NCBI RefSeq assembly: GCF_014217835.1
Contig: NZ_CP055263.1
Location: 2,855,501 to 2,919,500 of the forward strand
Direction of reading: 5' to 3'
Length of the DNA stretch: 64,000 bases
DNA from: Metabacillus sp. KUDC1714
GTDB taxonomy: Bacteria > Bacillota > Bacilli > Bacillales > Bacillaceae
Below the pieces are notes generated by a model. The model did no database searches. It was not told the origin of the DNA and worked only from the letters and a program-made list of their open reading frames with translations. The position numbers and the translations under genes were made by a program. This document shows positions 33,740 through 50,524 of the stretch, piece by piece. The first letter of the stretch is position 1, and the number at the start of each line of letters is the position of its first letter.

Positions 33740-33755
33740 ATAATACTTAAAACAT

Positions 33756-34422: not shown

Positions 34423-34432
34423 ACATGTTGGA

Positions 34433-35190: not shown

Positions 35191-35225
35191 AGTAAGAAAA
35201 GTTATAAATTCTGATACTACAAAAA

Positions 35226-35246
35226 AAGCAGGGGGCTTCCCCTGCC
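35226..35246 (-). terminator. Terminator after cotX
   Basis: GCAGGGG / CCCCTGC stem with a minus-strand run of seven T. Confidence 0.88.
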
Positions 35247-35258
35247 TCTATCTGGTCA

Positions 35259-35729: not shown

Positions 35730-35822
35730 AGTTTTTTTCCTCCTTTCAATGTACTACTATTAAATGCTGAAAATCTATTATTGTATAAGACAAACATCTT
35801 GGTACTAAAACCCATTTTTAGT

Positions 35823-36104
35823 TTATTTGTCTTTTCTATTTTTTAACATTTCACGTAATGTCATATTTTTAGGTGCTTCCACTTTTTCAACTGTATTTTC
35901 CACTTTCTTTTCTTTAGAACCTTTCACAAACTCGTCTACTTGTGCTTGAAGGTCTTCTACTACTTTTTTTAGTTGCGCTTTTTGCTCATCTGATAGCGTT
36001 TTTTTGTTTTCGTTTGAGATATTATTTTTACTTAAAACGTCTTGAACAAAGAGCTGCATCATAGTGGATGAAATTTCTTGTAGATTTAGTTTTTCGTTAG
36101 CCAT
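35823..36104 (-). CDS. cotW: Spore coat protein CotW
   Basis: A 93-residue, highly charged, helical protein with SDEQKAQLKKVVEDLQAQVDEF as a coiled-coil-like centre and a basic end (LREMLKNRKDK). The assignment as CotW depends mainly on charge pattern, length and position between cotX and cotV; CotW works with CotX and CotV in crust assembly. AGGTGA precedes the ATG. Confidence 0.75.
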   Translation of the reverse strand: MANEKLNLQEISSTMMQLFVQDVLSKNNISNENKKTLSDEQKAQLKKVVEDLQAQVDEFVKGSKEKKVENTVEKVEAPKNMTLREMLKNRKDK

Positions 36105-36264
36105 TTCTTTTCACCTCACTTTATTAATGGTAATGGGGCAAGTAGATCTGTTAGGTCGTACCCCAATTCCATAAACAATCTCGGTTATCATGCATGTCTT
36201 GATGAATACAAAGTGATCGCTCTAGTTGAACTAGAACGGATTTTCTAAAACAAAAGTATGAATA

Positions 36265-36675
36265 TTATAAAATGTCAATTTGAACTAATAGTGCAAGTAA
36301 GATTTGGATAAGAACCTGAAGAGAGATTGCAACATCTGTGTCAGTAGTTGTTACTTTAACGTCGCGAGAGTTTTCGATAATAAGTTTTTGTTTGTTTGCT
36401 TGTTTAATAACAGAGTTTTGCAATAGTTGTTGGGTAACCTTTTCAGCTTGATTACTATCAGCGATTGTTAAATTAATAACTAAGGCGATTGCAACTTGAA
36501 TTGCTGCTTGTAAGGAAACAGCGACTTGAGTTTCAGTTGTTTTCACTTCGATATTGCAAGAGTCTTTAATAACAATAAGCTCCTCTGAAGCTTGAAGTGT
36601 TTCAGTTACTTGAACAGCATCTTGTGTTGTATTTTCATTTTTGCAGTCATCTAAAGCAGACCATCTAGTAGACAT
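36265..36675 (-). CDS. cotV: Spore coat protein CotV (CotX family)
   Basis: A 136-residue protein with the same two-module architecture as CotX (EELIVIKDSCNIEVKTTETQ and KQKLIIENSRDVKVTTTDTD, each followed by a hydrophobic VAxSLQ segment). It is closer to CotX here than B. subtilis CotV is, as far as I can judge, so the gene name follows position: the end of the cluster, before yjcA. GAAAGGAGTGAG precedes the ATG. Confidence 0.82.
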   Translation of the reverse strand: MSTRWSALDDCKNENTTQDAVQVTETLQASEELIVIKDSCNIEVKTTETQVAVSLQAAIQVAIALVINLTIADSNQAEKVTQQLLQNSVIKQANKQKLIIENSRDVKVTTTDTDVAISLQVLIQILLALLVQIDIL

Positions 36676-36943
36676 AAAAACTCACTCCTTTCGTTAATTA
36701 AGAGGTTAGAAGAGAAACACGCTTTTGCCATTTCATTCTATTAAGGACGCGAAGGATCAAGTGAAGGAGATATATAAAAGCCGTGTTTCCCTTTACTTGT
36801 ATATAATGCAGATTCACTATCTTTTGAATGAGTAAAACATACAGATGTACACCCATTTTTCAGCAAATGCTCCAAGACGAACATAATCTAAAGACATACA
36901 CACAGCTAGGTGAAATATTTTGCTAAAGGTGACCTGTACCTAC
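36676..36943. other. Intergenic region cotV-yjcA
   Basis: Divergent promoter region. It includes an inverted repeat, GAAACACGC-TTTT at 36714-36726 against AAAAGCCGTGTTTC at 36776-36789, upstream of cotV. Confidence 0.5.
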
Positions 36944-36972
36944 TCATATTTAAGGAATCTTTTCCATACTGT
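36944..36972 (+). promoter_or_regulatory. Sigma-E-like promoter of yjcA
   Basis: TCATATTT, 13 bases, CATACTGT resembles the early mother-cell sigma-E consensus (-35 ATATT, -10 CATACANT). It starts 29 bases before the start codon ends. Confidence 0.6.
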
Positions 36973-37000
36973 ATAAGGATCATGGTTTAGAGGGGGGAGA

Positions 37001-37354
37001 TTGTTGGCAACTTGGCTACAACTTATCATCTTTGCATTCGCGTCCTTTCGATTAACAAGACTACTTGTCTTTGATAAGATAACTGAATTTATTCGTCGCC
37101 CTTTCCATAAGGAAATAGAAGAAATTGGTGATGATGGTGCTGTTGAAGTCTTTATCGAAATGAAAGGATCGGGCTTGAGGGCGTGGATTGGTGAATTATT
37201 GAGCTGCTATTGGTGTACCGGTGTGTGGTGTTCTTCATTTTTGTATGGAATATGGATTTTTTGGCCTCAAGGAGGGGAACCACTACTCGTTATTTTAGCA
37301 ATTGCAGGTGTTGCTGGTTTGATTGAGACCCTAGTGATGAAGCTTATAGATTAG
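37001..37354 (+). CDS. yjcA: Sporulation membrane protein YjcA (DUF1360)
   Basis: A 117-residue membrane protein. An N-terminal helix (LQLIIFAFASFRLTRLL) and two C-terminal helices surround a soluble stretch; the DUF1360 signature LLSCYWCTGVWCS is present. In B. subtilis yjcA lies after cotV and is expressed in the mother cell; its function is unknown. The start is a TTG; two TTGs three bases apart follow AGGGGGGAGA, and either could serve. Confidence 0.85.
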   Translation: MLATWLQLIIFAFASFRLTRLLVFDKITEFIRRPFHKEIEEIGDDGAVEVFIEMKGSGLRAWIGELLSCYWCTGVWCSSFLYGIWIFWPQGGEPLLVILAIAGVAGLIETLVMKLID

Positions 37355-37493
37355 GCAATTCACTTAGAAACAATTACTATTGTTCACATAAAATATGATA
37401 TAGGGCTACAGCTTTACTAAGATAGTGCAGAGGCAAAAGAATTAGCGCACATTTTCTTACTTATAAAAACTGCGCAGGAAGGTGGGAAAAGGA

Positions 37494-37625
37494 ATGAGTA
37501 AACTTAACTTGAATTCATCCCTAAGACCAAGTAACTCAAATCAATCCGTCTATTCGACTTCAACTTCTCAATCCAAAAAAGTTAAAAAAAGTGGCTGTGG
37601 TTGCGGAAAGAACAAGAAGCGTTAA
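37494..37625 (+). CDS. Small cysteine-rich basic peptide
   Basis: A 43-residue frame preceded by GGTGGGAAAAGG. The first 30 residues are Ser/Asn/Thr-rich and the end is KKSGCGCGKNKKR. Position after yjcA and the small, Cys/Lys-ended composition suggest a spore-layer peptide, but I recognise no family. Confidence 0.55.
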   Translation: MSKLNLNSSLRPSNSNQSVYSTSTSQSKKVKKSGCGCGKNKKR

Positions 37626-37840
37626 TAATCAATAGCTTGTTCAGCATTTACTAAGGATAAAACGTTTCAAGCTTATATACTGGAAGAAGTGACTCTTACT
37701 TTGAGTGGAAGTCACTTATTTTTTATAAACATTTGAACTGAGTTTTCGGGTCAGAGCAAATTCAGGTATTAAAAAATATATTGAACAATTAGGAATCTGA
37801 TTTAGGGTGTGCAAGCGAATTCCGAGAACTATAACTTTTA

Positions 37841-37872
37841 AAAAACCTAATCCTTTATGGACTAGGTTTTTT
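37841..37872. terminator. Hairpin related to the fabI terminator
   Basis: AAAACCTAATCCTTTATGGACTAG-like hairpin: AAACCTA and CTAGGTTTTTT, matching the fabI terminator at most positions. Confidence 0.75.
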
Positions 37873-37886
37873 ATACTTACTTGTTT

Positions 37887-38180
37887 TTAGTTCCCAATAA
37901 TGATTTTATCAGAAATATCAAATGTTACAGACCTACTTTTACTTTTTAGTTCCAAGAAGTCGATATATTGTTTCGCGGTTTCAGTAATTGAAGGAATTGG
38001 ATTACTTTGTTTTACAATAAAAAATCCTTCACCATAATCAATTCCTAAATCAATAACCCTTTGAAGTTCAGCCTCTGTTTCAATACCTTCAGCAATGAAT
38101 TCACAGTTCATTTTCTTAGCAAACGTTACAAATGCTTATAAAATATTGGACTTTACTTCATTATAATCAATTCCAGTTAT
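37887..38180 (-). pseudogene. Truncated EAL-domain gene
   Basis: The protein remnant contains AEGIETEAEL, LGIDYGEGFFIVKQSNPIPS and SKSRSVTFDISD, clearly a relative of the EAL protein at 31728-32675. Upstream of codon ATG at 38111 the homology continues for about 70 bases (AFVTFAKKMN region) but is interrupted by a TAA where the intact copy has GAA, and the N-terminal two thirds of the domain is missing. It cannot encode a working phosphodiesterase. Confidence 0.85.
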
Positions 38181-38185
38181 TGACC

Positions 38186-38546
38186 ATATTAAACTAGTAC
38201 ACATTTTATTCTTAACTAATATATCAACCCAATCATTTAATAGATTCTAGAATATCTTAATATTAGGTTAGTGAAATTAAATGCGCATTTTAATTCATCC
38301 TGGCTGACTAAAAATTAAGGTTCAGACCCCTCAACCGAATATATTTATGGTTTGATTAAACCAAAAGCTTTATATAGGTATTGTTAGAGGAATTAGAACT
38401 TATGAGTCACATTCTTTAGCCCCTTCCGTTCAACTACAAACTACTGGAAGTTTTTCTCTTCACCTAGGCAGAATTCTCAGTCAAAAAAAGTCTTACTTCG
38501 TATACTGTTTTCGAAGAATCAATTTAAAGGGAGTGAAAATACGGTT
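38186..38546. other. Intergenic region before the His-rich CotY-like gene
   Basis: AT-rich; no gene or RNA element recognised. The promoter of the next gene should lie here. Confidence 0.45.
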
Positions 38547-39113
38547 ATGTGTAATAAATGCGACCATAAAGATCACCATAAAGATCACCATAAATGCGAC
38601 CACAAAGATCACCACAAAGATCACGATAAATGTCATGAAAGTTGTGTTGAAGAAATTTTGGAGGCAATACTGAAGGCACAAAGGAAAGCAGATGGAGATG
38701 ATGGATGCAGAACTTCATGTAAAGAATCAATTAAAGAACTATTAGGAGAGTCAAAAAAATGGACGAAAAACACGATTCCTTTTATTCTTTACTGCGGTGA
38801 TTGTGCACCATTCAAAGCATCTGGAGCAACAACAATTTTAACCCATCATAAAAAGAAAAAGTTTGTTTGTATCACTTCTTTCATCTTTAGAATTAAGGAC
38901 ATCAAAGATAGTTGTGCTGTTCTTGAACTATTAACATTTAAATCTGATAAGAAATGCGAAAAAGATTCATATAAGAGATGTGACGAAACATGTTCACCAT
39001 GTTGTCAAATTGATCATAAAGATGTAGATGATTTAGTTAAAACTGGAATTTGTATAAATGTTGACCTTTCCTGCTTCTGTGCCGTAACATGCTTACCGGC
39101 AGTACATTTATAG
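38547..39113 (+). CDS. CotY/CotZ-family protein with His/Asp/Cys-rich N-terminus
   Basis: A 188-residue member of the CotY/CotZ/ExsY family. The family core spans about 55-188: CRTSCKESIKELL, NTIPFILYCGD, APFKASGAT, FIFRIKDIKDSCAVLELL and the end VDLSCFCAVTCLP. The first 30 residues are a tandem of DHK/DHHK units flanked by Cys, encoded by repeated AAAGATCACCA triplets, a likely metal-binding tail not seen in the standard family members. The core is more diverged than cotY and cotZ are from each other. AAAGGGAG lies before the start. Confidence 0.85.
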   Translation: MCNKCDHKDHHKDHHKCDHKDHHKDHDKCHESCVEEILEAILKAQRKADGDDGCRTSCKESIKELLGESKKWTKNTIPFILYCGDCAPFKASGATTILTHHKKKKFVCITSFIFRIKDIKDSCAVLELLTFKSDKKCEKDSYKRCDETCSPCCQIDHKDVDDLVKTGICINVDLSCFCAVTCLPAVHL

Positions 39114-39126
39114 ATCAGGTTAAAAT

Positions 39127-39157
39127 ATAGAGCCTAGTAAGAAAGCTAGGCTCTATA
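39127..39157 (+). terminator. Terminator after the His-rich CotY-like gene
   Basis: AGAGCCTAG / CTAGGCTCT stem directly after the stop. Confidence 0.8.
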
Positions 39158-39315
39158 TTAGGTGTAATCTATAAATAGAAAAATGACTTTATATGGGACA
39201 GCCTTCACTGTTGCATTTTAAATTCAATTTCATGCCTTTAGTTATTAAAAAAAACGTGGGCTAGAATCATAGCTAAATGGAAGTAGTAACTAACACCATT
39301 ATGGGTGTTTTTCAT

Positions 39316-39355
39316 AAAAAAAGGTGAACCGTAGTTTTTGAGTTCACCTTTTTAA
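39316..39355. terminator. Bidirectional terminator
   Basis: AAAAAGGTGAAC and GTTCACCTTTTT; a smaller hairpin AACACC / GGTGTTTTT precedes it at 39292-39312. It would end transcripts from both sides, including the ParM operon. Confidence 0.8.
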
Positions 39356-39382
39356 ATAGCTAAGATAGTATAAAATTTTGTA

Positions 39383-39513
39383 CTTAGTTTTGGTGTCTAG
39401 CTCCAGCGCCTAGACCCTCTTAGGTCTAAGCCACTCAGGAATTGAAGACAAAGAACGTCTTCTATTCCTGAGCGTCTTATGCCTGCCTTAGTCTGAACAA
39501 GGCGCTTGCGCTT
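39383..39513. repeat. Dispersed repeat B, copy 3
   Basis: Begins TTTTGGTGTCTAGCTCCAGC and closely matches the inverse of the copy at 35068, including GAACGTCTTCTATTCCTGAGC. Its end abuts the stop of the ParM partner gene. Confidence 0.88.
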
Positions 39514-39522
39514 TTCTTAAAG

Positions 39523-39894
39523 CTATCCTCCAAAAGCTTCAAGAACATCCTTTATGTCACTCATCTCTAAGTCTATTGGTGCATGATGTCGATGGTTAGT
39601 AGGGTTTGATACTTGGAAATTATTTTTTTGAGTATACCCCTGTTGCATCATTTTTTTTATTTCTGATAACTCAAACAAAATTTCCTCGTTACCCCCATGT
39701 ATTAGTTTAGGATGAAGGTAACTATTAAGGGCTGATAACAGAAGGTGAATAAGTGTATTGTTATTAGTATGGTATTCGATTTGTTCCTGCATTTTTTGGG
39801 ATACAATATGTGACTCTCCTGTTTTGACATCGATGAATTTGTCAGGAAGAGTTAAAATAGTTTTGTTTATATAATCGGTGAAAATTTCAGCCAT
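39523..39894 (-). CDS. Putative partner protein of the ParM-like actin
   Basis: A 123-residue soluble protein starting five bases after the ParM stop, with GGGTGA placed for the ATG. It is helical in character, with a histidine-rich stretch (HRHHAP) and an acidic end (DLEMSDIKDVLEAFGG). In plasmid segregation operons the gene after the actin encodes the DNA-binding adaptor (ParR-like); the size and coupling agree, but I see no clear ribbon-helix-helix sequence, so the role is inferred from position. Confidence 0.6.
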   Translation of the reverse strand: MAEIFTDYINKTILTLPDKFIDVKTGESHIVSQKMQEQIEYHTNNNTLIHLLLSALNSYLHPKLIHGGNEEILFELSEIKKMMQQGYTQKNNFQVSNPTNHRHHAPIDLEMSDIKDVLEAFGG

Positions 39895-39899
39895 CTTGA

Positions 39900-41096
39900 T
39901 CACCCTTTAACCTTTGCGGCAACATGAGCAACATTAATCCCATTTTCTTTCTTGAATTGATTCATTTTCGCCAGGACCATCAGTCCAAGAACATTAAGCT
40001 TTTCCATATCTTCTGGAAATAATAAATCTATCGGGCGCCCTCTTTCAGACCATTTCACTGCAGCTTCTTGAATTTCTCTTTGGGCCAATTTTGCAGCCCC
40101 ACCAACTGCAATATACCGGGCTGCACCTTTGACTTCATTTGAACTGCTACGGACTCGATCGAAATGTTCAAGGTATTTCATTGCCATTGATTTTAACTGT
40201 GGAATAATATATTTACTAATATCTTTTCTTACGCCTGCAAACGGTTCAACAAACCATTCCGACTGTCCTGCTGATAATTTTTCTTCAAGCTCAGACCTCG
40301 AATCGAATTTATACAGTTCATTTTTACTGATTTTTTGAATGATATTATCTAGAAATTGATTTATTCCGAACTGTTCTCCTTCGACAGAAGCTACAGGTTT
40401 ATTATTCTTAATGCCTACAAAATCGACTGAATCTCCCCCAAGGTCCCCAATAATGATTCCTTTACGTGATTCACTAATAAGAGATTCATCTTTAATTCCT
40501 AACGTTGCTTGGTCACGTGTAAGACCTAAATATGCGCATGCTCCTTCTGCACCAACAATTACATCTTTTACATGTAGTTTGACAACTAACTCCTTTGGCT
40601 CTGCAGTGCCTGGTACCTTATGAAAAATAACGGAATGAGTACCAATTAAACGCTGCTTAAAGCTGTCTTTCTTTTCTTTGTATTGAGTGGTAGGTAAAGA
40701 AACAGCTAATTGGTCAATCGTATAGGATAGCACAGTTTCTTCGGGGTTTAGTAGCACTGCATGATAAGCTGCAAGGGCAAAGAGCAGAATGTAAGTACGA
40801 TCCTCATCTACTTTCTGATTATTAATAGTCGTTAAACTTACATCTCGTTGCTTAGCAGCCGCCTTACCAATATAAAATATTTCCCTTTTATCTACTATTG
40901 CCGGACTTTTCACCTCTACAATAAGGTTTTCTTCAAAGACTACATCCTCATCATCATAAGGTTTTTCATAAAACTCTCCATCATATTGTGCAATGGCATT
41001 TGGAATTTGATATTCGCACACCATTCCCTGATCAGAAGCCAAAGCCTTATACCAACTGTTTCCTAAATCAACGGCAAGAAAGTTTAGTCTTTCCAT
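39900..41096 (-). CDS. ParM/StbA-like actin ATPase
   Basis: A 398-residue actin-like ATPase. Actin-fold motifs are visible: phosphate-1 loop LAVDLGNSWYKAL at residues 7-19, phosphate-2 GDLGGDSVDFVGI at mid-protein and the adenosine motif YIAVGGAAKLAQ near 330. It belongs to the ParM/StbA group that moves plasmids by filament growth; some phage and chromosomal members exist. AAGGAGTGAG precedes the ATG. It is unexpected between crust genes and CsxC-like genes, and no plasmid replication gene is nearby. Confidence 0.85.
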   Translation of the reverse strand: MERLNFLAVDLGNSWYKALASDQGMVCEYQIPNAIAQYDGEFYEKPYDDEDVVFEENLIVEVKSPAIVDKREIFYIGKAAAKQRDVSLTTINNQKVDEDRTYILLFALAAYHAVLLNPEETVLSYTIDQLAVSLPTTQYKEKKDSFKQRLIGTHSVIFHKVPGTAEPKELVVKLHVKDVIVGAEGACAYLGLTRDQATLGIKDESLISESRKGIIIGDLGGDSVDFVGIKNNKPVASVEGEQFGINQFLDNIIQKISKNELYKFDSRSELEEKLSAGQSEWFVEPFAGVRKDISKYIIPQLKSMAMKYLEHFDRVRSSSNEVKGAARYIAVGGAAKLAQREIQEAAVKWSERGRPIDLLFPEDMEKLNVLGLMVLAKMNQFKKENGINVAHVAAKVKG

Positions 41097-41299
41097 TTTC
41101 TCACTCCTTCCTCTTGAATCCTATGCAGATTGGGCGTTACATTGTGCAAGTACTTATAAATATATTTGGGCTTTTTTTTATTCCCAAAATTCCACATTTG
41201 TACTACTGCATTTATCCATAGGTTCGCATAGGATAACTTGAACCTAAAACAATAGGAGGTTCGGTTAAATTAAACCTAATTAATAGGAGGAAAAAACAA

Positions 41300-42061
41300 A
41301 TGAATAAAGATAAAAATTGTGTAGATGTTAATCAATCTGCTTCTGTAAGCCATTGTGATAATGTTGCTGTTCCACCGGCTACTGCACCAGCTGGAACAAC
41401 AATAATAAAAGTTCCTGTTACCCTTGCGGAAAGAGAAATTAGTTCTAGTCTTGTTGCAAATATTCATTTTCCAGACCCTGTACTTGAAATCAAAGATATT
41501 AAAAAGAGGGTGAAAATTGTTCAGTGTCGTCTTTTGACACCACCAGCTCCAACTGCAGAGCCTACATTCTCTGCCGGGCCTTTTCAATTATTTTTAAAAG
41601 GATTTGTTCGTAAAAATATCCAATACGCGACACCTTGCCCGAATTCTTCAGGATCGTGTGTGTCTTCCGAAATCAAGTCTCTTACGGTTGATGTTCCGTT
41701 TGAATGTGTGACTACTGTTACATTAGATGAACCAGTTCAATTGCCGCAAGTAGGTACTCGAACAGAATTTGATTTCTTTAGAGAACAAAAGTTAGGGCAC
41801 GGTTTCCCTGAAAAAGATCATCTTCTTTCGAGCGATCTTTCCCAGTTCCATCAGGAAAGCACTCAGTTCTATAATGAACTTCCATTCTGCGAGTTATTAT
41901 CAAGCAGTATAACTGAATGGGATGAAGCAATAGATCGTAAACCACTTCCTGGCAATGCTCCGTTCGAAGAAGGAACATTCCAGGAAATAGTAGAAAAAAT
42001 GTTCTTACGCTTTACAATTAAAATCTTGCAAAAACAGCAAGTAAGGATTACAGCTTTATAG
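41300..42061 (+). CDS. SPOCS/CsxC-like spore surface protein 1
   Basis: A 253-residue protein with a SPOCS-type (DUF3794-like) domain as in the exosporium protein CsxC. The core runs KVPVTLAEREI, LEIKDIKKRVKIVQCRLL, LFLKGFVRKNIQYAT and VDVPFECVTTV; a second conserved block follows (EFDFFREQ, GFPEKD-LLSSDLSQFHQEST, ELPFCEL, EWDEAIDR). The N-terminus carries two Cys among low-complexity residues. It is a paralogue of the next gene. Spore surface location is inferred from the family and neighbours. AGGAGGAAA precedes the ATG. Confidence 0.75.
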   Translation: MNKDKNCVDVNQSASVSHCDNVAVPPATAPAGTTIIKVPVTLAEREISSSLVANIHFPDPVLEIKDIKKRVKIVQCRLLTPPAPTAEPTFSAGPFQLFLKGFVRKNIQYATPCPNSSGSCVSSEIKSLTVDVPFECVTTVTLDEPVQLPQVGTRTEFDFFREQKLGHGFPEKDHLLSSDLSQFHQESTQFYNELPFCELLSSSITEWDEAIDRKPLPGNAPFEEGTFQEIVEKMFLRFTIKILQKQQVRITAL

Positions 42062-42401
42062 ACTGAAAACAACTGAATCCTTCTTACTTTGGCGAGTGGT
42101 GATAGGATTCGGGCGGAAGGCAATATCATGGCAATTCCTCTAGGAAGGAAGCATGGCATTGTCCTTTCTTGTTTATAAAGCAAGTAATCCTCTACTAATA
42201 TACATATTCCAAGTTCATAAAAATTGATTGTGTAATTAAACATAGTCTTAAAAGTTTTTTAATTTTTTTTACTTAATGTATTTTTCTGACTTATATGCGC
42301 TCAAAAATTCAAGTTTATATATTTTTTTTTTTCACCTGAACCTTAAGTTTATAGGCATTTATCACTTGTTCAGAGTGATGCCTATAGGCAAGTGCCCAGT
42401 A
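42062..42401. other. Intergenic region between CsxC-like genes 1 and 2
   Basis: About 340 bases with T-rich tracts and no recognisable gene; the sigma-K-like promoter of the next gene follows. Confidence 0.5.
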
Positions 42402-42428
42402 ACATAGTCATTTATCACGCATATGATG
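42402..42428 (+). promoter_or_regulatory. Sigma-K-like promoter of CsxC-like gene 2
   Basis: AC, 16 bases, CATATGATG; it deviates from CATA-N3-TA only in the last base. Confidence 0.5.
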
Positions 42429-42456
42429 CCCTATCTTGAATTTAGGAGGAGACCAA

Positions 42457-43239
42457 ATGTCTGATACAAATAAAAAAATGCATGACTGCTGTAAGGTTTC
42501 AACAAATCAATGTGAATGTGATAATAAGCCTCATCGACCACATGTTAGTATTGGAAAAATCATTGCAAAGGTACCTGTCGTTTTAGCAGAGCTTACTCTA
42601 CAGGTGAATGTAGATGCACTTATTGATTTTCCAGAGCCAGTATTAGAGATAAAAGATATTAAAAAACAGGTGAAAATAACTCAATGTAGATTGCTTCTGC
42701 CTACAAACAAACTATTTGTAAAAGGATTTGTCCGCAAAAATATTCAATATGCTAGTCCAAGCAAAGACATTGAACAAAGTACGTCAAAAACTGTAGCATC
42801 AGATCTACATTCTTATACTGTCGATATTCCGTTCCAATGTGTGACAGAAATCAAGAAATTTTTATCTAAGCCAGTGATGCCAGAATTAAACAAACGTCAG
42901 GAGTTTGATTTCTTTGTTTCAAAATCATTGCCTTCAGGTTTTCCGGAAAAAGATGAATTATTATCAAGTGATTTATCTCAGTTTCACCAGGAAAGTACCC
43001 AATTTTTTAATGAGCTCCCATTCTGTGAATTAATTTCCAGCAAAATAATTGAATGGGATGAAGCAATAGATAGAGTTCATCTTCCAAACTCTGCACCTAT
43101 TGGCGAAGGGTACTTTACTAAAGTAGAAGAAAAAATGGTTGTTGATATTACCTTAAAGGTACTGCAAAATCAACAGGTTCGTGTTTCTTCTACAACAAAT
43201 GATGATTGCTACCATGACCATGACTGTGATTGTGATTAA
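42457..43239 (+). CDS. SPOCS/CsxC-like spore surface protein 2
   Basis: A 260-residue paralogue of the preceding protein: KVPVVLAELTL, LEIKDIKKQVKITQCRLLL, LFVKGFVRKNIQYAS and the block FPEKDELLSSDLSQFHQEST, ELPFCEL and EWDEAIDR are nearly the same. It adds a Cys/His/Asp-rich N-terminus (CCKVSTNQCECD) and a terminal metal-binding-like tail (CYHDHDCDCD). TTAGGAGG lies eight bases before the ATG at 42457; an upstream in-frame start has no site. It is probably cotranscribed with the large repeat protein. Confidence 0.75.
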   Translation: MSDTNKKMHDCCKVSTNQCECDNKPHRPHVSIGKIIAKVPVVLAELTLQVNVDALIDFPEPVLEIKDIKKQVKITQCRLLLPTNKLFVKGFVRKNIQYASPSKDIEQSTSKTVASDLHSYTVDIPFQCVTEIKKFLSKPVMPELNKRQEFDFFVSKSLPSGFPEKDELLSSDLSQFHQESTQFFNELPFCELISSKIIEWDEAIDRVHLPNSAPIGEGYFTKVEEKMVVDITLKVLQNQQVRVSSTTNDDCYHDHDCDCD

Positions 43240-43318
43240 AACTAGATGTTAGTTTCTACGAGAATTGAGTAGCAGGGAGGGGATTGGAGAGGATGCTTAG
43301 CAGCACCTTTCAGAGAAA

Positions 43319-46078
43319 ATGGATAATAAAAGATATGCATATGAAGGATCCTACCCATTTCGTCGGAAAAGAGATAGAAATTCAAGCGATCTTACAAACA
43401 GCATAATGGATCGTGGAGAAGATCGACAAAAGAACAGTAACAAACAAATTTTGAATGTAGATGACAAACAGTATAAGAATACAGGAGCAACTAATAACCA
43501 GGTATCCTCAACTAGCAATATAGATAAACAAATTAATTCAGTTCCTTTAATTTTGCCTCGACCAAAGTTGGAGGAACAAAAGATTAAACTAAAGAAAAAT
43601 ATACAAGAAGAATTTGAAAATGAGCATGTGAATGAATTCATGCACCCAAAAACATCATCTAATTTAAATTTAAGTAAAGCAGGTAACAAAATTAAGCAAG
43701 AGTTGAATGAAGATGAACTTATTCAAAGGAAGGAAAGAATCTCTTCGATGATGAATCAATTTTCCTCAATGCTCGAAGAATCCTTTTCCTTCCAGGATAA
43801 GTTCTCTGTTAAGCGCGAGGAATCTTCATCCTTTAGTGAAAAGTCTTCATCTGACAGTGAGGAATCCTCTATGCTGGAGGAAGAGTTTTCAAGCAAGCTT
43901 GAAAAAGGAACTTCTTTACTAGATGAGCCTGAATCAAGCAATAAAGAAAATACTTTACTACAAAAAGAGTTTTCAGCGATGCTTGTAGAAGGATCTCCCG
44001 AATGGGATGAGTCTGAATCAATAAACGAGGAAGTCACATCTCTAGAAAAAGAATTTTCAGCGATTCTTAAAGGAAGATCTCCCGAATGGGATGAGTCTGA
44101 ATCAATAAACGAGGAAGTCACATCACTAGAAAAAGAGTTTTCAGCGATTCTTAAAGGAAGATCTCCTGAATGGGATGAGTCTGAATCAATGAACGAGGAA
44201 GTCACATCACTAGAAAAAGAGTTTTCAGCGATGCTTGAAGGAAGATCTACCAAATGGGATGAGTCCGAATCAATAAACGAGAAAGTCACATCACTAGAAG
44301 AAGAGTTTTTAGCTATGCTTGAAGAAAGATCTCCCGAGGATGAGTCTGAATCAATGAACAAGGAAGTCACAACCCTAGAAGAAGAGTTTTTAGTGATGCT
44401 TGAAGAAAGATCTCCTGAATGGGATGATTGTGAATTAATCAAAGAAGAAGATACTTCATTAGAAGAAGAGTTTTCAGAGATGCTTGAAGAAAGATCTCCC
44501 GAATGGGATGATTGTGAATTAATCAAAGAAGAAGATACTTCATTAGAAGAAGAGTTTTCAGAGATGCTTGAAGAAAGATCTCCCGAATGTGAAGAGTCTG
44601 AATTAATCAAAGAAGAAGATTCTTTATTAGAAGAAGAGTTTTCCGAGATGCTTGAAGAAAGATCTCCCGAACGGGATGAGTCTGAATCAATCAAAGAAGA
44701 GGATTCTTCATTAGAAGAAGAATTTTCCGAGATGCTTGAAGAAGGATCTTCCGAATGTGAAGAGTCTGAATCAATCAAAGAAGAGGATCCTTTATTAGAA
44801 GAAGAGTTCTCAGAGAAACTTGAAGAAGGATCTCCCGAATGTGAAGAGTCTGAATTAATCAAAGAAGAAGATTCTTCATTAGAAGAAGAGTTTTCAGGGA
44901 TGCTTGAAGAAGGATCTCCCGAATGTGAAGAGTCTGAATCAATCAAAGAAGAGGATTCTTCATTAGAAGAAGAGTTTTCAGGGATGCTTGAAGAAAGATC
45001 TCCCGAATGTGAAGAGTCTGAATCAATCAAAGAAGAGGATACTTCATTAGAAGAAGAGTTTTCAGCCAAGCTTGAAGAAAGATCTCCTGAATGTGAAGAG
45101 TCTGAATTAATCAAAGAAGAAGATTCTTCATTAGAAAAAGAGTTTTCAGAAATGCTTGAAGAAGGATCTCCCGAGTGGGATGAGTCTGAATCAACCAAAG
45201 AAGCAGATAACTCACTAGAAGAAGAGTTTTCAATGAAGCTTGAAGAAACCTCTTCCGTACTTGATGAGTTTGCTCCTACCGCTGAAGAAGTCTCATCACT
45301 ACAGAATGAATCTTCTTCAGTTCAGGATGAGTTTATTGAAGATGCTACTTCAAGTCTAAATAGATTTGACTCTTTACTAGATAAATTTTCTTTAATGCTT
45401 GAAGATGAGCATGAGCATGCTTCTAGTCAGGATGGTTTTGAAAGAGAGCTTTTAAAGGAGGAAAATAGGGAGGACGAATCTTGCAAAACTCCTTTAAAGC
45501 AAAATCTTTCTGAAAATTGTTCACAAAAATCGCACCTCCCAATAGTAAAACTTCCTGTTTTACTTGCTAAAACGAACATTGATATCGATATTTTTAATTC
45601 GTTAGAATTTTCATTGCCAATAGCAAATATAACTAAAATTGAGTGGGCGATTGATTCTTTAGAATGCCGTGTGCTATTACCTTCAACTACTGTTTTCTTG
45701 AAAGGGATACTGATAGCAGATATCCAATATGTAAACGAGAACCTTACACACACACTTCATACAGTAAAAGTTCCAGTTCCATGGGAGAAAATTATTACTA
45801 TTAATTGGCTTTACCCTCCTGTCTTATCAAGCAGCAGTCAAAGAGAGTTTATGTTTGGATCACATGATGCTGGAGAGGTTAGTTCACATTACGAGTATTG
45901 TCAGAAAATTACAGATCAAATTGAATATTCTTTACGAAGTATCAACTTTGTATGGCATGATGAAGTAGGATCTCAGGCAGAGACGCCAAAGGTCTCTATT
46001 CAAGGAAGAGCCAAACTTGCTATCGATCTATTGCAGCAGCAGTATATTGATCTTAATTCAGCAGGGAGCTTTCTTTGA
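43319..46078 (+). CDS. Large acidic repeat protein with C-terminal SPOCS/CsxC-like domain
   Basis: A 919-residue protein in three parts. Residues 1 to about 130 are basic and low-complexity. About 200-660 are acidic (Glu/Ser) repeats; fifteen clear 28-residue units (226-644) follow SPEC/WxESExIxEExxSLEEEF then SxMLEEx. The final 180 residues (about 738-919) resemble the neighbouring proteins: KLPVLLAKTNIDIDI, ITKIEWAIDSLECRVLLP, VFLKGILIADIQYV, VKVPVPWEKI. The 28-residue period equals four heptads, with Leu/Phe/Met at hydrophobic spacing, so a long coiled coil is likely. No signal peptide. Ribosome site is weak; coupling to the gene 80 bases upstream is plausible. Role as a spore surface fibre is inference. 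Confidence 0.8.
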   Translation: MDNKRYAYEGSYPFRRKRDRNSSDLTNSIMDRGEDRQKNSNKQILNVDDKQYKNTGATNNQVSSTSNIDKQINSVPLILPRPKLEEQKIKLKKNIQEEFENEHVNEFMHPKTSSNLNLSKAGNKIKQELNEDELIQRKERISSMMNQFSSMLEESFSFQDKFSVKREESSSFSEKSSSDSEESSMLEEEFSSKLEKGTSLLDEPESSNKENTLLQKEFSAMLVEGSPEWDESESINEEVTSLEKEFSAILKGRSPEWDESESINEEVTSLEKEFSAILKGRSPEWDESESMNEEVTSLEKEFSAMLEGRSTKWDESESINEKVTSLEEEFLAMLEERSPEDESESMNKEVTTLEEEFLVMLEERSPEWDDCELIKEEDTSLEEEFSEMLEERSPEWDDCELIKEEDTSLEEEFSEMLEERSPECEESELIKEEDSLLEEEFSEMLEERSPERDESESIKEEDSSLEEEFSEMLEEGSSECEESESIKEEDPLLEEEFSEKLEEGSPECEESELIKEEDSSLEEEFSGMLEEGSPECEESESIKEEDSSLEEEFSGMLEERSPECEESESIKEEDTSLEEEFSAKLEERSPECEESELIKEEDSSLEKEFSEMLEEGSPEWDESESTKEADNSLEEEFSMKLEETSSVLDEFAPTAEEVSSLQNESSSVQDEFIEDATSSLNRFDSLLDKFSLMLEDEHEHASSQDGFERELLKEENREDESCKTPLKQNLSENCSQKSHLPIVKLPVLLAKTNIDIDIFNSLEFSLPIANITKIEWAIDSLECRVLLPSTTVFLKGILIADIQYVNENLTHTLHTVKVPVPWEKIITINWLYPPVLSSSSQREFMFGSHDAGEVSSHYEYCQKITDQIEYSLRSINFVWHDEVGSQAETPKVSIQGRAKLAIDLLQQQYIDLNSAGSFL
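43994..45250 (+). repeat. 84-base coding tandem repeat array (15 units)
   Basis: Fifteen in-frame units of 84 bases (one of 81, lacking a codon at unit 5) encode the 28-residue repeats. Early units carry WDESES and KGR ends, late units CEESES and EEG/EER ends, and neighbouring units are most alike, as expected from unequal recombination. A degenerate unit lies on either side. Confidence 0.92.
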
Positions 46079-46094
46079 ACACATAAATAATAAG

Positions 46095-46125
46095 AAAGGG
46101 TGTCTTGTTTATGAGACACCCTTTC
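46095..46125. terminator. Terminator between convergent genes
   Basis: AAAGGGTGTCT / AGACACCCTTT with an eight-base loop. Confidence 0.9.
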
Positions 46126-46135
46126 AAAATTTTTA

Positions 46136-46930
46136 TTAGCGACGCATTACATTTCTGATACTGTCGTAAATAGTAGATCCTGCGAAAGTAGCTCCTCCAG
46201 TAATAGGTGGTGTAGTTGGTGCAATTGTTGGAGGTGTGAAATTCTGTTGTTTTTGGAATAATTTAAGTGCAAGTAAGACTTCCATTTTCTCAGTAACTCT
46301 GTCAAATCTACCCCAGTTGTCAAAATTGCTTAATTCGTCTAGTTCGTTGACAGCAGCAAAAAGCAATTTACATCCAATTGGTTCATTAAATACCTCGAAT
46401 GTTACTGTTCCAAATGAACAACGGTCTGCTCCGTGACCATCCTTAGAAAGTTCTCTAACTTCATCAACAGAACTTTTTCGACTAAACTGACCAAACGGGA
46501 AGAAAATAGGGTTTTCAAGTGGAACTTCTATAAAACAGTCAAATGGAACATCTACGCTATAATCTTTAATCCATCCATTGCAATCCTCTACATATTGAAT
46601 ATTTTTGTGTACAATACCTTCCACCCATAATTTAACAGTTAATGAAGGGTCTAGGAAAGAAGGGACAGCTCTACACTGTGTTAATGAAACATTCTTCCTA
46701 ATAGATTTAATTTCCCTTGCAAACGTTGGAAGCTTTATATCCGCTTTGACAATAGTTTGTAATGTAATATCTGTAAGAACAACCGTTCTTTCTTCATCAG
46801 CTACTACCGGAAACTCTGTAACTGTACACTCCCCTGATGTTGAATGTGCTACGTCACAAGATGGACCAGGAGGACAGCCGTGTTGTTTTGAGTGGTTATC
46901 ATTACAACCACAACCTGTATTTCTCTTCAT
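46136..46930 (-). CDS. SPOCS/CsxC-like spore surface protein 4
   Basis: A 264-residue protein. The N-terminus is Cys/His-rich (GCGCNDNHSKQHGC, then CDVAHSTSGEC); the domain follows with ERTVVLTDITLQ, AREIKSIRKNVSLTQCRAV, LWVEGIVHKNIQYVEDC and YSVDVPFDCFIEVPL, and a helical part ends LLALKLFQKQQ. The C-terminal tail is Thr/Pro-rich (FTPPTIAPTTPPITGG). It is more distant than the first two. The start at 46930 has TAGGAGTGA upstream. Confidence 0.75.
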   Translation of the reverse strand: MKRNTGCGCNDNHSKQHGCPPGPSCDVAHSTSGECTVTEFPVVADEERTVVLTDITLQTIVKADIKLPTFAREIKSIRKNVSLTQCRAVPSFLDPSLTVKLWVEGIVHKNIQYVEDCNGWIKDYSVDVPFDCFIEVPLENPIFFPFGQFSRKSSVDEVRELSKDGHGADRCSFGTVTFEVFNEPIGCKLLFAAVNELDELSNFDNWGRFDRVTEKMEVLLALKLFQKQQNFTPPTIAPTTPPITGGATFAGSTIYDSIRNVMRR

Positions 46931-47177
46931 TCTTTTCACTCCTAAAGTTATTTTTGTCAAAAGAAACGATATGTTCCAAATCGTTCTAGAGTTTTTATAA
47001 CTGATTTCTTTTTGACATACTATTGTATATGTCTGAACGTACAAATAGGAATGGACTCATGTCGATATACATTTACTAATTTTAATAATTTTTGAAGTTT
47101 TTAGTGATTAACCCCATAAATTTTCTATTTCAGTCTAATTCACGCCCTTTACATATATACAAAACAAATTCATCCTC

Positions 47178-47204
47178 ACAATGTTTCATAATAATCATAA
47201 ATTA
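47178..47204 (+). promoter_or_regulatory. Sigma-K-like promoter of the first glycosyltransferase gene
   Basis: AC, exactly 16 bases, CATAAATTA fits the sigma-K consensus; 34 bases before the ATG. Confidence 0.6.
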
Positions 47205-47238
47205 ATAATGGAAATCTTTTAAAGGAGCGACAAAAAGA

Positions 47239-48117
47239 ATGAAATCACAACCCTCAATATCTATAATTTTCCCCGTTAAAAATGAGGGAGAAAATGTTAG
47301 ATCAACACTTGAATCGTTATTTTCAATAGAAACAAACTATGCGTTTGAAACAATTGTTGTTGACGATGGATCAACGGATGGCTGCTGTAATTTTCTTGAA
47401 ACTTATCAAAATAAAGCTCGTGTAAAGTTGGTTCAAACCAAGGGGATCGGTGCTGCTAACGCAAGAAACTTAGGAGCAGCAAAAGCATCAGGAGAATATC
47501 TTATCTTTTGTGATGCTCATTTGCAGTTTGAGAATTGGTGGATCGACCGATTATTAGAACCACTAGTTAGCGGGAAATCTGATGCTGTTACACCAGGCAT
47601 AGCGGATATGGAAAATCCACAAGCTATTGGATACGGGCAAACTCTATCTCCTAAGCTTGAAACAGGATGGAATCTTAAACAAAACAATTTATTTGAAACA
47701 GCTGTATTGCCTGGAGGTTGCTTCGTCATCTCAAGAAAAGTATTTAATGATGTCGGCGGCTTTGAGATTGGCTTTAAAACGTGGGGCCATGAAGATGTGG
47801 AACTGTCGATAAAGCTATGGCTTTTTGGTTATCGCTGTCATGTATTACCTGACGTAACAATTTTACACTTATTTAGAAGAATCCATCCATATAAAGTTAG
47901 AAGCGATGATGTTTATTACAATTTAATAAGAATGGCGTTTTCTCATTTTAATGATGTACGTATACAAAAATGCAAGATGTTCATTACTAATAGTAAAGCA
48001 AAAATTATTGAGTCACAAGTACTGCAAGACGGTGTTATTAAGCAACGTGAAAGCTATTTTCAAAAACGAAAATATAATGATGACTGGTATTTTAAGAAAT
48101 TTCATATAGATTTTTAG
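47239..48117 (+). CDS. Family 2 glycosyltransferase
   Basis: A 292-residue GT-A glycosyltransferase. The UDP/GDP-sugar motif DDGSTDG is at about 45-51, the metal motif appears as DAH (FCDAHLQ), and GGCFVISRKVF and the WGHEDVELSIKLW acceptor/ED motif follow. It has no membrane segment. It resembles polypeptide- or polysaccharide-modifying GT2 enzymes (GalNAc-transferase-like layout). Sugar and acceptor are unknown; with the sigma-K-like promoter a spore-surface role is likely. AAAGGAG precedes the ATG. Confidence 0.88.
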   Translation: MKSQPSISIIFPVKNEGENVRSTLESLFSIETNYAFETIVVDDGSTDGCCNFLETYQNKARVKLVQTKGIGAANARNLGAAKASGEYLIFCDAHLQFENWWIDRLLEPLVSGKSDAVTPGIADMENPQAIGYGQTLSPKLETGWNLKQNNLFETAVLPGGCFVISRKVFNDVGGFEIGFKTWGHEDVELSIKLWLFGYRCHVLPDVTILHLFRRIHPYKVRSDDVYYNLIRMAFSHFNDVRIQKCKMFITNSKAKIIESQVLQDGVIKQRESYFQKRKYNDDWYFKKFHIDF

Positions 48118-48704
48118 ACTATGTCCACTATGATAAAAGTAATTTTAAAATCATTTTATTAATTTAAGCTTCTCTATAATATTTCCTAAAATAAATTTTG
48201 TTAATCAGTAACTATTCTTTATCGTGTTTAGAGTCTTTTCTCTTTATTACTTTACTCTTTAGAAGAAATTAATAGGAAATCATCAACTAAAGATTCTAGT
48301 GGACAATAGAAAAATGATATCCCCCTTAATTTAGGCCGGAATAAAAACTTAATAATAACGATAAAAAAATTGTAAACAATTGCAATGAATTTGCGGAGTT
48401 TCTTACTTTTTTAGTACCATAAAGAAAGGTTTTCCCAGTTACTTTAAGTCCCTCGACTTTTAAGTTTCAGAAGCCAAACAGGGGAGATTAGGAAAAGATG
48501 TTAACATGTCCAATATTGACTTTATCAACACTTTAGAAATTCAAAAAAGATGGGAATCAAAGTTAGACTCCCCATCTAAAAGAGAATAGGGATAATACTA
48601 AAAAAATTACCTATAATTTCTTGGGATAGGCTTTTTGAGGAAATCTCAAGGCGTTAGAGAAGAAATTAAATCAGTTATTCGTTGAACTACGATTATGGAT
48701 TGTT
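48118..48704. other. Intergenic region, possible small relic
   Basis: Almost 590 bases without a real gene. A 27-codon frame at 48509-48589 (MSNIDFINTLEIQ start) ends early and has only a poor ribosome site; it may be a gene remnant. Nothing else is recognised. Confidence 0.4.
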
Positions 48705-49379
48705 CTAAATAACACCAGAACCGAAACGATAATCGAATAACTCAATTTCCTTTTTATAATATCTTTCTACTATTTGTTTTTGTTCTAATGTGTAAAATTT
48801 AGTATAATGGTCTCGGTTCTTTCTATAATTTCCTTTAGCTTTTGGGAGCCACCCATCGTATGGTAATCCAATTTCTTTACAAATCTTCATTATATCTTCT
48901 TCTAAGTTTTCATATTTACCGACAAAATCAACAACTACACGATCATCTATCGTATATAAGGGATAGTTATAAGGGAATGTTACGTAAGTATCCAGAAATT
49001 GTTCAAAAGTTATTTTCTCATTTGATTTTTTTGTAGCTATAAAGTAGTAGGCGGAAATAACTTTATCCCAGGGATCCCTCTCAAAACAGAATTTATAATA
49101 AGAGTTCCATATATTTTCTCCTATCAACTTTTTAATTTCATCAGCAGGAATATGATTATAAAATTCTTTTTTCTCTATTTGGTTATTCTCGTGAATTTCG
49201 ATTACGTAGTTTTGTGGAAATTTCCCGAATTCAGCTCTTATATTTTCATCCTCTGTTGGGTAGATTGGCGTTATGATATCTTCCTCACTACAAAATCGTG
49301 ATAAACTAATCTCTATACTAGTTCCTGCCGTTTTTTTAGTCTTTATAAAGATAAATTTATGTTTATGAGATATAATCAT
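48705..49379 (-). CDS. Sulfotransferase-family protein
   Basis: A 224-residue protein of the PAPS-dependent carbohydrate sulfotransferase group. The 5'-phosphosulfate loop is IKTKKTAGTSIE (12-23), and the 3'-phosphate motif is FERDPWDKVISAYYF, with the conserved Arg and Ser. The enzyme would transfer sulfate from PAPS to a sugar hydroxyl. The fold has no signal peptide, so it would act in the mother-cell cytoplasm. The acceptor is unknown. GGAGG lies just upstream of the ATG. Confidence 0.85.
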   Translation of the reverse strand: MIISHKHKFIFIKTKKTAGTSIEISLSRFCSEEDIITPIYPTEDENIRAEFGKFPQNYVIEIHENNQIEKKEFYNHIPADEIKKLIGENIWNSYYKFCFERDPWDKVISAYYFIATKKSNEKITFEQFLDTYVTFPYNYPLYTIDDRVVVDFVGKYENLEEDIMKICKEIGLPYDGWLPKAKGNYRKNRDHYTKFYTLEQKQIVERYYKKEIELFDYRFGSGVI

Positions 49380-49542
49380 AATTTCCTCCTATTTTAAGTG
49401 TAATACTCGTCATATAGTTATATAAATGTAAATTAAGTGATATGGAAGCTATACATATAATTAAAAGAAACAGACTTACCAAAGAGTAAAGTCTGTTCAA
49501 AATCAAAAAGTATTCGTATATAAACTGTTTAGATTAGTTACT

Positions 49543-49917
49543 TTAATTTCCCAATCCAATAGTACCTGGAATTTCATATACAAATAAGTCCCCATACTTA
49601 AATGTTACACTAGGATTGAGATTTAGCCCAAGGGCATCTATCCCAGTAATATAAGGGATTACTCTTTGATTATTTGTTCGTACTACGATTTCGTAGTTAT
49701 TCGGAAAGATTGGAGGAGTAAAGGTTCGGGATGCACCACTACTTGGAGGAATTGAAAAAGTATCCTGACTTACAAGAGTTTTAGGTGAGGTTGCAGTATT
49801 AAAAAACAAAATACTCACTATTTGCGTGGTCTCTTCAACCTTATTCATAACATCAACGCGAACAGAGCCAAGATTTAATAGTGGTGAACCTATTTGTCCT
49901 GTGGAATGGATAAACAT
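49543..49917 (-). CDS. Hypothetical beta-rich protein
   Basis: A 124-residue protein that I do not recognise. It begins MFIHSTGQIGSPLLNLGS, is rich in Ser/Thr/Pro/Asn and alternates short hydrophobic strands (VSILFFN, YEIVVRTN, VTFKYGDLFVYEI), as in small beta-sandwich surface proteins. It has no signal peptide. AAAGGAG lies ten bases before the ATG at 49917; the earlier TTG is too close. Location among coat and glycan genes hints at a spore surface role. Confidence 0.6.
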   Translation of the reverse strand: MFIHSTGQIGSPLLNLGSVRVDVMNKVEETTQIVSILFFNTATSPKTLVSQDTFSIPPSSGASRTFTPPIFPNNYEIVVRTNNQRVIPYITGIDALGLNLNPSVTFKYGDLFVYEIPGTIGLGN

Positions 49918-50524
49918 AGAAAACAATCTCCTTTCTTAACATTACCATAGTAGTATACGAAAATAATCTCCCTACTTAACAATTATTTTCATACCTAATG
50001 TAATATATTGATAGAATTGGTAAATGAAACGGTAAATGACTCTATCGAATCATTTTTTTTTTTTCACTCCAATTCACATAACATATGATGCTCTCGGAAA
50101 TTGAACACTTCACATTTCATTGAGGTATTTTTCTATATAGGTCTTTGATACACATTTCAATGTATAAGGGAGATTTTGTACACATTTATTCATAGTGACT
50201 TCTATTATTTGTACATAAAGTAACTCTTCAATTGCGGCTACGGTTATTTAAAGGGTAAAGTTACCGAGTGGATTTTAACCACCTAGATTGTGTGACTGCA
50301 GAGCACACATGAAAATAAGTTTGAACCTTCCATTATTTAAATCGTTCTTCTATCTTTAACTGTCCCTTATAAAAGCGATGCTTTTCTCTTTTTTTAGTTT
50401 AGTCATTAGGACAAGAACACAATTTCGCCAACATAGTCATCACTCCACGCGATATTCTATCAAAACACATATTGTAAAGTATGTTGTGTCGGATATGTAA
50501 ATAAGAATGTCGAGGTGTTGAATA
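49918..50524. other. Intergenic region before manC
   Basis: About 600 bases, AT-rich, without a gene. CATATTGTA at 50468-50476 has the sigma-K -10 form, but no AC at the right distance was found. The segment AACATAGTCAT at 50430 recurs before CsxC-like gene 2 (42401). Confidence 0.45.

What the first reader, a model, noticed from the sequence alone, without database searches (positions are those of the whole stretch)
43319..46078. Giant 28-residue-repeat protein fused to a SPOCS/CsxC-like domain
Fifteen in-frame 84-base units encode acidic 28-residue repeats (four heptads each) ahead of a C-terminal domain shared with three neighbours. The likely picture is a long coiled-coil stalk anchored by a spore-surface domain, with repeat number free to vary between strains. 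I know no described protein of this build.
Basis: partly seen in the sequence, partly recalled or inferred. Interest (0 to 1): 0.82.

Follow-up and report, generated by a model that had tools for sequence, protein, structure and literature searches.

The report
Acidic-linker spore protein with hairpin-split start
A bacterium's spore-surface gene cluster encodes a long, strongly acidic protein whose middle varies in length (in some relatives in seven-residue steps) between two conserved ends, and its messenger can form a hairpin between the ribosome-binding site and the start codon; the family looks real, widespread and undescribed, but its function is untested.

Summary
The 919-residue ORF (43319-46078, +) and its 84-bp repeats are real. 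It belongs to a family, unnamed in Pfam and NCBIfam, found in 36 of 397 sampled genomes of its order, and follows a csxC-type gene in 35 of 35 loci. Members share a short N-terminal motif (33 of 34, 3.7 expected), a hypervariable acidic middle and a C-terminal all-beta domain distantly related to CsxC (hhalign 98.9%). SPOCS membership is not supported. A continuous coiled-coil stalk is disfavoured: Pro in nearly every unit, low-confidence short helices in AlphaFold2, net charge -138. Repeat length does vary: two relatives with identical C-domains differ by 28, 21 and 1 residues. I read the protein as an extended polyanionic tether between two coat components, a mirror image of SpoVID's layout. 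Unexpectedly, in 32 of 41 leaders the Shine-Dalgarno lies 38-46 nt from the ATG with a possible hairpin between, as in phage T4 genes 25/38; six have ordinary spacing. A model of the element matches once in this genome. Covariation support is weak, and in 8 of 32, the window included, the Shine-Dalgarno itself is mostly paired.

The parts
41300..42061 (+). CsxC-family gene 1 (253 aa)
   Evidence: NCBIfam NF045794 272 bits, cut-off 135
42401..42427 (+). sigma-K-like promoter in front of CsxC gene 2
   Evidence: mAC-N14-17-CATAnnnT match (consensus recalled); such sites lie within 300 nt of 20 of 51 csxC-type genes (4.2 expected) but only 2 of 35 repeat-type genes (2.3 expected); consensus match only, and CsxC gene 1 of the window has none
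42454..43239 (+). CsxC-family gene 2 (261 aa), upstream partner
   Evidence: NF045794 275 bits; a csxC-type gene lies upstream on the same strand in 35 of 35 family loci
43276..43280 (+). Shine-Dalgarno core, 38 nt before the ATG
   Evidence: sequence; spacer table
43287..43311 (+). possible hairpin between Shine-Dalgarno and start codon (split ribosome-binding site), 10 pairs with one bulged A; SD-side gap 6 nt, ATG-side gap 7 nt
   Evidence: spacer fold -11.6 kcal/mol, z -2.4; covariance model matches once in the genome at E <= 1, E 8.6e-9 (150 of 2973 first-look candidates scored); a fold that pairs the SD with the 3' arm is 0.8 kcal/mol better here
43319..46078 (+). acidic-linker spore protein, 919 aa
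43544..43567 (+). conserved N-terminal motif PLILPRPK (residues 76-83; family type PLILPPPK)
   Evidence: 33 of 34 readable N-termini, 3.7 expected in shuffles; pattern chosen after seeing the sequences
43757..43780 (+). single copy of the short motif QFSSMLEE outside the array (residues 147-154), the type repeated in the array
   Evidence: motif counts: 31 in 50 other sequences against 0.7 expected, present in 14 of 50
43874..45298 (+). array of 17 units of 28 (one of 27) residues, acidic, heptad-periodic
45536..46075 (+). C-terminal CsxC-like all-beta domain (residues 740-919)
   Evidence: AlphaFold2 pLDDT 89.8 with 35 sequences
46094..46125 (.). bidirectional terminator-like hairpin between the convergent genes
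   Evidence: 4 such sites in the region, 3.8 expected in shuffles; this one has the longest stem
46136..46933 (-). CsxC-family gene 3 (265 aa), convergent
   Evidence: NF045794 173 bits

Best explanation
This is the longest seen member of an undescribed family of outer-spore-layer tether proteins. Shown: a short conserved N-terminal motif, a fast-evolving polyanionic Ser/Glu linker whose length varies (in one closely related group in multiples of seven residues), and a predicted folded C-terminal domain related to the CsxC protein encoded upstream. Inferred: both genes are transcribed together late in the mother cell; the C-domain packs with CsxC paralogues in the spore surface, the N-terminal motif docks on another coat component, and the extended acidic linker spans or hydrates the gap. 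Also inferred: the gene is translated from a split ribosome-binding site, in which a hairpin between Shine-Dalgarno and ATG folds a 38-46 nt gap down to a workable distance.
For: Conserved motif, variable middle and conserved C-domain. csxC-type neighbour in 35 of 35 loci. C-domain homologous to CsxC. Coat-gene neighbourhood. sigma-K-like sites before csxC genes but not before this gene. Linker charge and predicted disorder. Length steps of 28, 21 and 7 residues between P0005, P0006 and P0007. Leader: 32 of 41 loci have the SD 38-46 nt away, six have 7-16 nt, leaving no room for a hairpin. One leader per lineage gives mean z -1.82, Stouffer -6.8 over 14 (two of them of unknown genus); 45 nt before csxC-type starts give mean z -0.39 over 39. 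Model R1 hits 24 of 397 genomes, 22 of them 0.5-2.2 kb upstream of this gene's C-domain. T4 genes 38 and 25 work this way (passages of PMC3014915).
Against: No expression, proteomic or binding data. The docking role of the N-terminal motif is a guess. Covariation of the hairpin is not above shuffles on the main group; on all 32 leaders only the covariation score stood out (1 of 500 shuffles), the other four measures did not (46, 398, 82 and 429 of 500), and sliding the 3' partners by one column gives as high a covariation score in both sets. In 8 of 32 leaders, the window included, the SD is more paired than free, because the 3' arm can also pair with it; in six others or the same ones the AUG is more paired than free (L032, L034, L059, L066, L068, L069). 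R1 misses 14 of 36 gene-carrying genomes. Heptad periodicity is absent in many members (acid z above 3 in 15 of 46), and only P0005-P0007 among the pairs compared change in heptad steps, so these may reflect repeat slippage. The promoter sites are consensus matches.
Confidence: 0.5

Rival explanations
1. Long parallel coiled-coil stalk: the 28-residue units form one continuous oligomeric helix that projects from the spore surface, anchored by the C-domain.
For: Period 28 = 4 x 7; hydrophobic autocorrelation at heptad lags z 5.8; length changes in heptad steps among P0005-P0007; three helices of the array above pLDDT 50.
Against: Best-phase a/d positions only 46-62% hydrophobic, Pro in nearly every unit, longest Pro/Gly-free run 30 residues; net charge -138 over 443 residues; AlphaFold2 gives short separate helices, mostly at low confidence.
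Confidence: 0.15
2. Cation- or polycation-binding brush: the acidic linker's main role is to bind calcium or basic coat proteins and set surface charge, with no interlayer tethering.
For: 34% Glu, pI about 4; acidity kept although sequence is not: 18-34% D+E before the C-domain in 33 of 35 listed members, lower in L042 (cut short) and L044.
Against: Does not explain why a specific N-terminal motif is kept at the far end.
Confidence: 0.2
3. The leader is not a split ribosome-binding site: the SD serves a short upstream ORF starting in the hairpin, and the gene is translated by termination-reinitiation coupling.
For: 26 of 32 leaders have ATG/GTG/TTG 4-17 nt after the SD, and in 14 of 32 a resulting stop ends within -3 to +4 nt of the gene's ATG.
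Against: 6 of 32 have no such start codon yet keep the hairpin; several others give ORFs of 1-3 codons ending about 20 nt early; in the window the ORF runs out of frame 88 nt past the gene's ATG.
Confidence: 0.2
4. The leader hairpin is a switch or repressor site: the 3' arm pairs either with the 5' arm (SD open) or with the SD (closed).
For: SD mostly paired in 8 of 32 leaders, window included; the two folds differ by at most 2.8 kcal/mol.
Against: SD mostly free in 24 of 32, among them the L050/L052/L053-type leaders, whose stem has another sequence.
Confidence: 0.15

Closest known systems
CsxC family (NCBIfam NF045794; CsxC is an exosporium protein of Clostridium sporogenes, passages of PMC4942563)
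   Same: C-terminal domain is a distant homologue; three full CsxC-family genes lie beside it
   Different: 36.5 bits against a cut-off of 135; carries a 739-residue N-terminal part in front of the domain; C-domain not cysteine-rich (2 Cys)
SpoVID (TIGR02907), hub between inner and outer coat
   Same: Same kind of layout: folded domain, acidic middle (25-43% D+E in the 13 of 20 fetched loci that could be read; the window genome's own copy not among them), short targeting region at the far end; PMC6282716 (start of abstract and passages) calls the middle 'possibly extended'
   Different: Order reversed, no LysM, no detectable homology of the folded domains (hhalign 0.3%); the genome has its own SpoVID at G000:C1:349493-350611
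CotB/CotG serine-rich repeat coat proteins of B. subtilis
   Same: Low-complexity Ser-rich repeats in coat proteins (abstract of PMC7821199)
   Different: This linker is acidic; no CotH kinase found in this genome (0 at E 1e-3, control finds B. subtilis)
Split ribosome-binding sites of phage T4 genes 38 and 25
   Same: Structure between SD and AUG shortens a too-long spacing (22 to 5 and 27 to 11 nt; passages of PMC3014915)
   Different: Here chromosomal, 38-46 nt, in front of one gene family in 9 genera by model R1; function untested

Membership tests
CsxC family (NF045794) | Score over curated cut-off of 135 bits | tested here: not met
   36.5 bits, residues 744-850; 7 of 12 members of the new family match at E 0.1
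CsxC family (NF045794) | Homologous domain over most of the CsxC length | tested here: met
   hhalign A3 vs A4, probability 98.9%, 175 columns
CsxC family (NF045794) | Protein found in spore surface layer | not testable with these tools
   no proteomics available
SPOCS / SipL (PF12673) | Profile match | tested here: not met
   no match up to E 10; in the whole genome no match over cut-off, best 20.5 bits on the convergent neighbour
SPOCS / SipL (PF12673) | Fold shared with SpoVID N-domain | tested here: inconclusive
SpoVID (TIGR02907) | N-terminal morphogenetic domain and C-terminal region A plus LysM | tested here: not met
   no LysM or spore_VI_D match up to E 10 in Pfam and NCBIfam scans
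CotB/CotG phosphorylated repeat proteins | CotH kinase in the genome | tested here: not met
   PF08757, 0 matches at E 1e-3
Canonical long coiled coil | Hydrophobic a/d core without helix breakers | tested here: not met
T4-type split ribosome-binding site | SD too far from AUG with a hairpin possible between | tested here: met
   32 of 41 leaders; z
T4-type split ribosome-binding site | SD and AUG left free by the fold | tested here: inconclusive
   SD mostly free in 24 of 32, window not among them; AUG mostly free in 26 of 32
T4-type split ribosome-binding site | Stem kept by compensatory changes | tested here: inconclusive
   main group not above shuffles; all 32: covariation score reached by 1 of 500 shuffles but equalled by a one-column slide, other measures not above shuffles; six leaders have another stem sequence at the same place
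T4-type split ribosome-binding site | Destabilising the stem lowers translation | not testable with these tools
   needs reporter assays
Known RNA family (Rfam 15) | Match over gathering score | tested here: not met
   38000-50000 searched to E 5; 5 matches, none on the leader, none over cut-off

The most novel reading that the evidence does not exclude
A conserved bacterial chromosomal split ribosome-binding site, matched once in the genome, controls a family of spore-layer tethers whose acidic linkers act as adjustable rulers: linker length changes in heptad quanta and tunes the distance between two coat layers, with translation of the tether set relative to its partner CsxC by the intercistronic hairpin.
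Probability: 0.25. Interest if true: 0.8.

Novelty: new variant of a known kind. Interest (0 to 1): 0.58.

Why it matters
Few rules are known for how outer spore layers are spaced and joined. A family with two fixed ends and a length-variable acidic linker, tied to csxC genes in many Bacillales genera, gives a direct test: change linker length and measure layer spacing. The leader hairpin, if it works as in T4 genes 25 and 38, would be a conserved chromosomal example of a split ribosome-binding site and a clean model for structured spacing in translation initiation.

Tried and rejected
TetR_C_15 (PF17918, 40.7 bits, over its cut-off) matches only the repeats (best stretch 412-454), in 1 of 12 family members; rejected as a repeat artefact. 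The antisense ORF 43756-45198 (480 aa) is taken as a shadow of the repeats. CotH phosphorylation rejected for this genome.

RNAalifold on the sequence alignment predicted no pairs, because sequence alignment puts the two stem types out of register (my reading); a structure given by hand was then counted. Literature: no paper with BC_2427; 'CsxC family' and DUF7852 had 0 occurrences in the 6 papers shown of 505; titles and abstracts listed showed no bacterial chromosomal split site (listings only). The plasmid collection holds one match, to a CsxC protein. PHROGs and PADLOC were not searched. Absence in the sister genome G004 is not firm: its csxC gene lies 243 bases from a contig end (locus L067).

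Rows dropped before counts: for leaders, 41 loci were looked at (35 family loci and 6 extra; L024 and L028, printed, repeat L051 and L066). 32 were used; 6 have a near SD (L001, L007, L044, L047, L048, L060); L058 (SD 27-30 nt, weak stem), L042 (start not found by ORF; frame to the C-domain looks broken) and L027 (start uncertain) were left out. Spacing was measured from the first SD-like match; L006, L054 and L061 have another 22-28 nt from the ATG, and several have a second one a few nt nearer. Start codons of 13 family loci were set by hand, and those of 3 extra loci moved to the next in-frame ATG. Model R1 was built from 21 of the 32 leaders, so its hits in those genomes are not independent; the 14 of 36 gene-carrying genomes that it misses include the near-SD ones and the six-leader group with another stem.

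Full report
THE OBSERVATION. The window is one stretch of a 5.76-Mb single-contig genome. The 919-residue ORF and the 84-bp array are real. Units are 28 residues (one 27), 17 in register. Seven positions never vary in 14 units and dN/dS between units is 0.40. Residues 203-645 are 34% Glu with net charge -138 and 8 Cys; position 16 of the unit is Trp in 7 and Cys in 6 of 14 units, so cross-linking is conceivable. A DNA pattern for its core, EF[ST]xMLE[ED], matches 7 times in the genome, all in this gene; the reversed control matches 0 times.

A FAMILY. A search with the C-terminal 195 residues found 16 proteins of 553-791 aa, named hypothetical or not at all (one 'DUF3794 domain-containing'), from Bacillus methanolicus, Priestia abyssalis, Cytobacillus, Sporosarcina globispora and others (7 named loci). 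The window's own protein was not among them. Whole-genome searches at E 1e-20 found the domain in 36 of 397 genomes of the order (15 of 136 genera) and 2 of 80 of the family, the window's genome counted in both. In the genus, 2 of 21 genomes match at E 1e-3, but one of them only through plain CsxC proteins. The distribution is patchy. In 35 of 35 loci examined, a csxC-type gene lies upstream on the same strand; it ends within about 200 nt of the gene, except in L042, where the gene's start was not found.

ANATOMY. (a) N-terminal motif: PLILPPPK-like, 33 of 34 readable N-termini against 3.7 expected; the pattern was drawn after seeing the sequences. (b) Acidic middle: repeat periods differ between members - 28 here, 27 in P0001, 35 in P0002, 40 in P0009, 67 in P0015 - and many members show no clear repeat. 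A seven-residue period of acidic residues is the best lag of 5-12 in 22 of 46 proteins, and z exceeds 3 in 15 of 46. A short motif [FY][STL]x[MLI]L[ED] occurs 12 times here and 31 times in the 50 other sequences (0.7 expected; present in 14 of 50; these rows include some duplicates of the same protein), so the array looks like amplification of an older motif. (c) C-domain: all-beta model, pLDDT 89.8, related to CsxC at 98.9% probability, not detectably to SpoVID's N-domain (0.3%), with no clear solved counterpart.

LENGTH VARIATION. P0006 and P0007 have identical C-domains and differ by gaps of 28, 21 and 1 residues in the linker; P0005 and P0007 differ by 7, 7 and 1. The other four pairs compared do not follow heptad steps: P0010/P0011 15, 14 and 3; P0008/P0015 94 and 40 among smaller gaps; P0012/P0013 48 and 40 among smaller gaps; P0013/P0014 gaps of 1-11. 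Heptad steps are therefore shown for one close group only.

COILED COIL? Pro stands at position 14 in 12 of 14 units, best-phase core positions are 46-62% hydrophobic, and the longest Pro/Gly-free run is 30 residues. AlphaFold2 on 12 sequences shows helices of 9-20 residues in the repeats, mostly below pLDDT 50, three of them above. A stalk is disfavoured, not excluded.

OPERON AND LEADER. sigma-K-like sites lie before 20 of 51 csxC-type genes (4.2 expected) but before 2 of 35 repeat-type genes (2.3 expected), suggesting co-transcription. A terminator-like hairpin lies at 46094-46125. Reading the upstream regions showed a repeated layout: strong SD, inverted repeat, a few nt, ATG. In 32 of 41 leaders the SD core ends 38-46 nt before the ATG; in six others it is 7-16 nt away, which leaves no room for a hairpin. 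Folding of the 32 spacers: mean z -1.91, single values from -4.4 to -0.1. One per lineage: mean -1.82, Stouffer -6.8, n=14, two of them named loci whose genus rank I do not know; control, 45 nt before csxC-type starts: mean -0.39, n=39, with an SD pattern in 19 of 39, spaced 4-11 nt plus extra matches at 19-20 nt (the control stretch includes the SD, the spacers do not). A covariance model finds one site in this genome and 24 in 397 genomes, of which 22 lie 0.5-2.2 kb upstream of this gene's C-domain on the same strand, in 9 genera; the other two are a site inside polA and one before a transporter gene (names by eye). It misses 14 of the 36 gene-carrying genomes. No Rfam match on the leader.

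AGAINST THE LEADER READING. Covariation is weak, and a one-column slide does as well. The SD can pair with the 3' arm and is mostly paired in 8 of 32 including the window; the AUG is mostly paired in 6 of 32. Upstream-ORF coupling is possible: in 14 of 32 a stop falls at the gene's ATG. Phage T4 genes 38 and 25 are the tested precedent (PMC3014915, passages).

READING. The best account is a tether: CsxC-like domain at one end, docking motif at the other, polyanionic extended linker between, made from a csxC operon through a split ribosome-binding site. SpoVID is the nearest studied analogue in layout: its acidic middle was checked here in 13 of the 20 loci fetched, and its hub role is from PMC6282716 (start of abstract and passages). 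SPOCS naming follows PMC10867305 (two passages). CsxC as a C. sporogenes exosporium protein follows PMC4942563 (passages). Function, location and binding partners are inferred.

NOVELTY. Pfam and NCBIfam name the family only through weak CsxC matches, in 7 of 12 members. The protein is a new variant of the known kind 'modular coat protein with a low-complexity linker'; the leader is a new variant of the T4-type split site.

Noticed in passing
window 33215-39113: Outer-coat/crust gene cluster: CotO (33215), two CotY/Z-type genes (33857, 34433, -), two CotX (35259, 36265, -) and CotZ (38547) by Pfam.
   Followed up: partly
window 39523-41096 (-): Actin-like ATPase gene (Pfam ALP_N, Alp7A-like C) with a small downstream ORF, like a plasmid segregation pair, lying in the chromosome next to the csxC cluster.
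   Followed up: no
window 48705-49379 (-): Sulfotransferase-family protein (PF03567) near a glycosyltransferase and a sugar-nucleotide gene; a sulfated spore glycan would be unusual.
   Followed up: no
window 49543-49926 (-): 127-aa protein with no Pfam match at E 0.01 that resembles, from memory only, endospore-appendage subunits.
   Followed up: no
L077 27-80: A transporter gene (by eye) in genome G402 also has SD, hairpin, ATG spacing picked up by the covariance model; split sites may be commoner than known, or this is chance.
   Followed up: no
L042 4810-6528: Leader element is matched by the model, but the reading frame from it to the C-domain looks broken, so the gene seems decayed or misassembled there.
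   Followed up: partly
window 61421-61452: Eight perfect copies of the tetranucleotide CTAA starting in the last bases of a glycosyltransferase-like ORF (by eye) and running past its stop.
   Followed up: no
window 30608-30703: 42-bp imperfect tandem repeat (2.3 copies) right after a thiamine-phosphate-synthase-like ORF (by eye).
   Followed up: no
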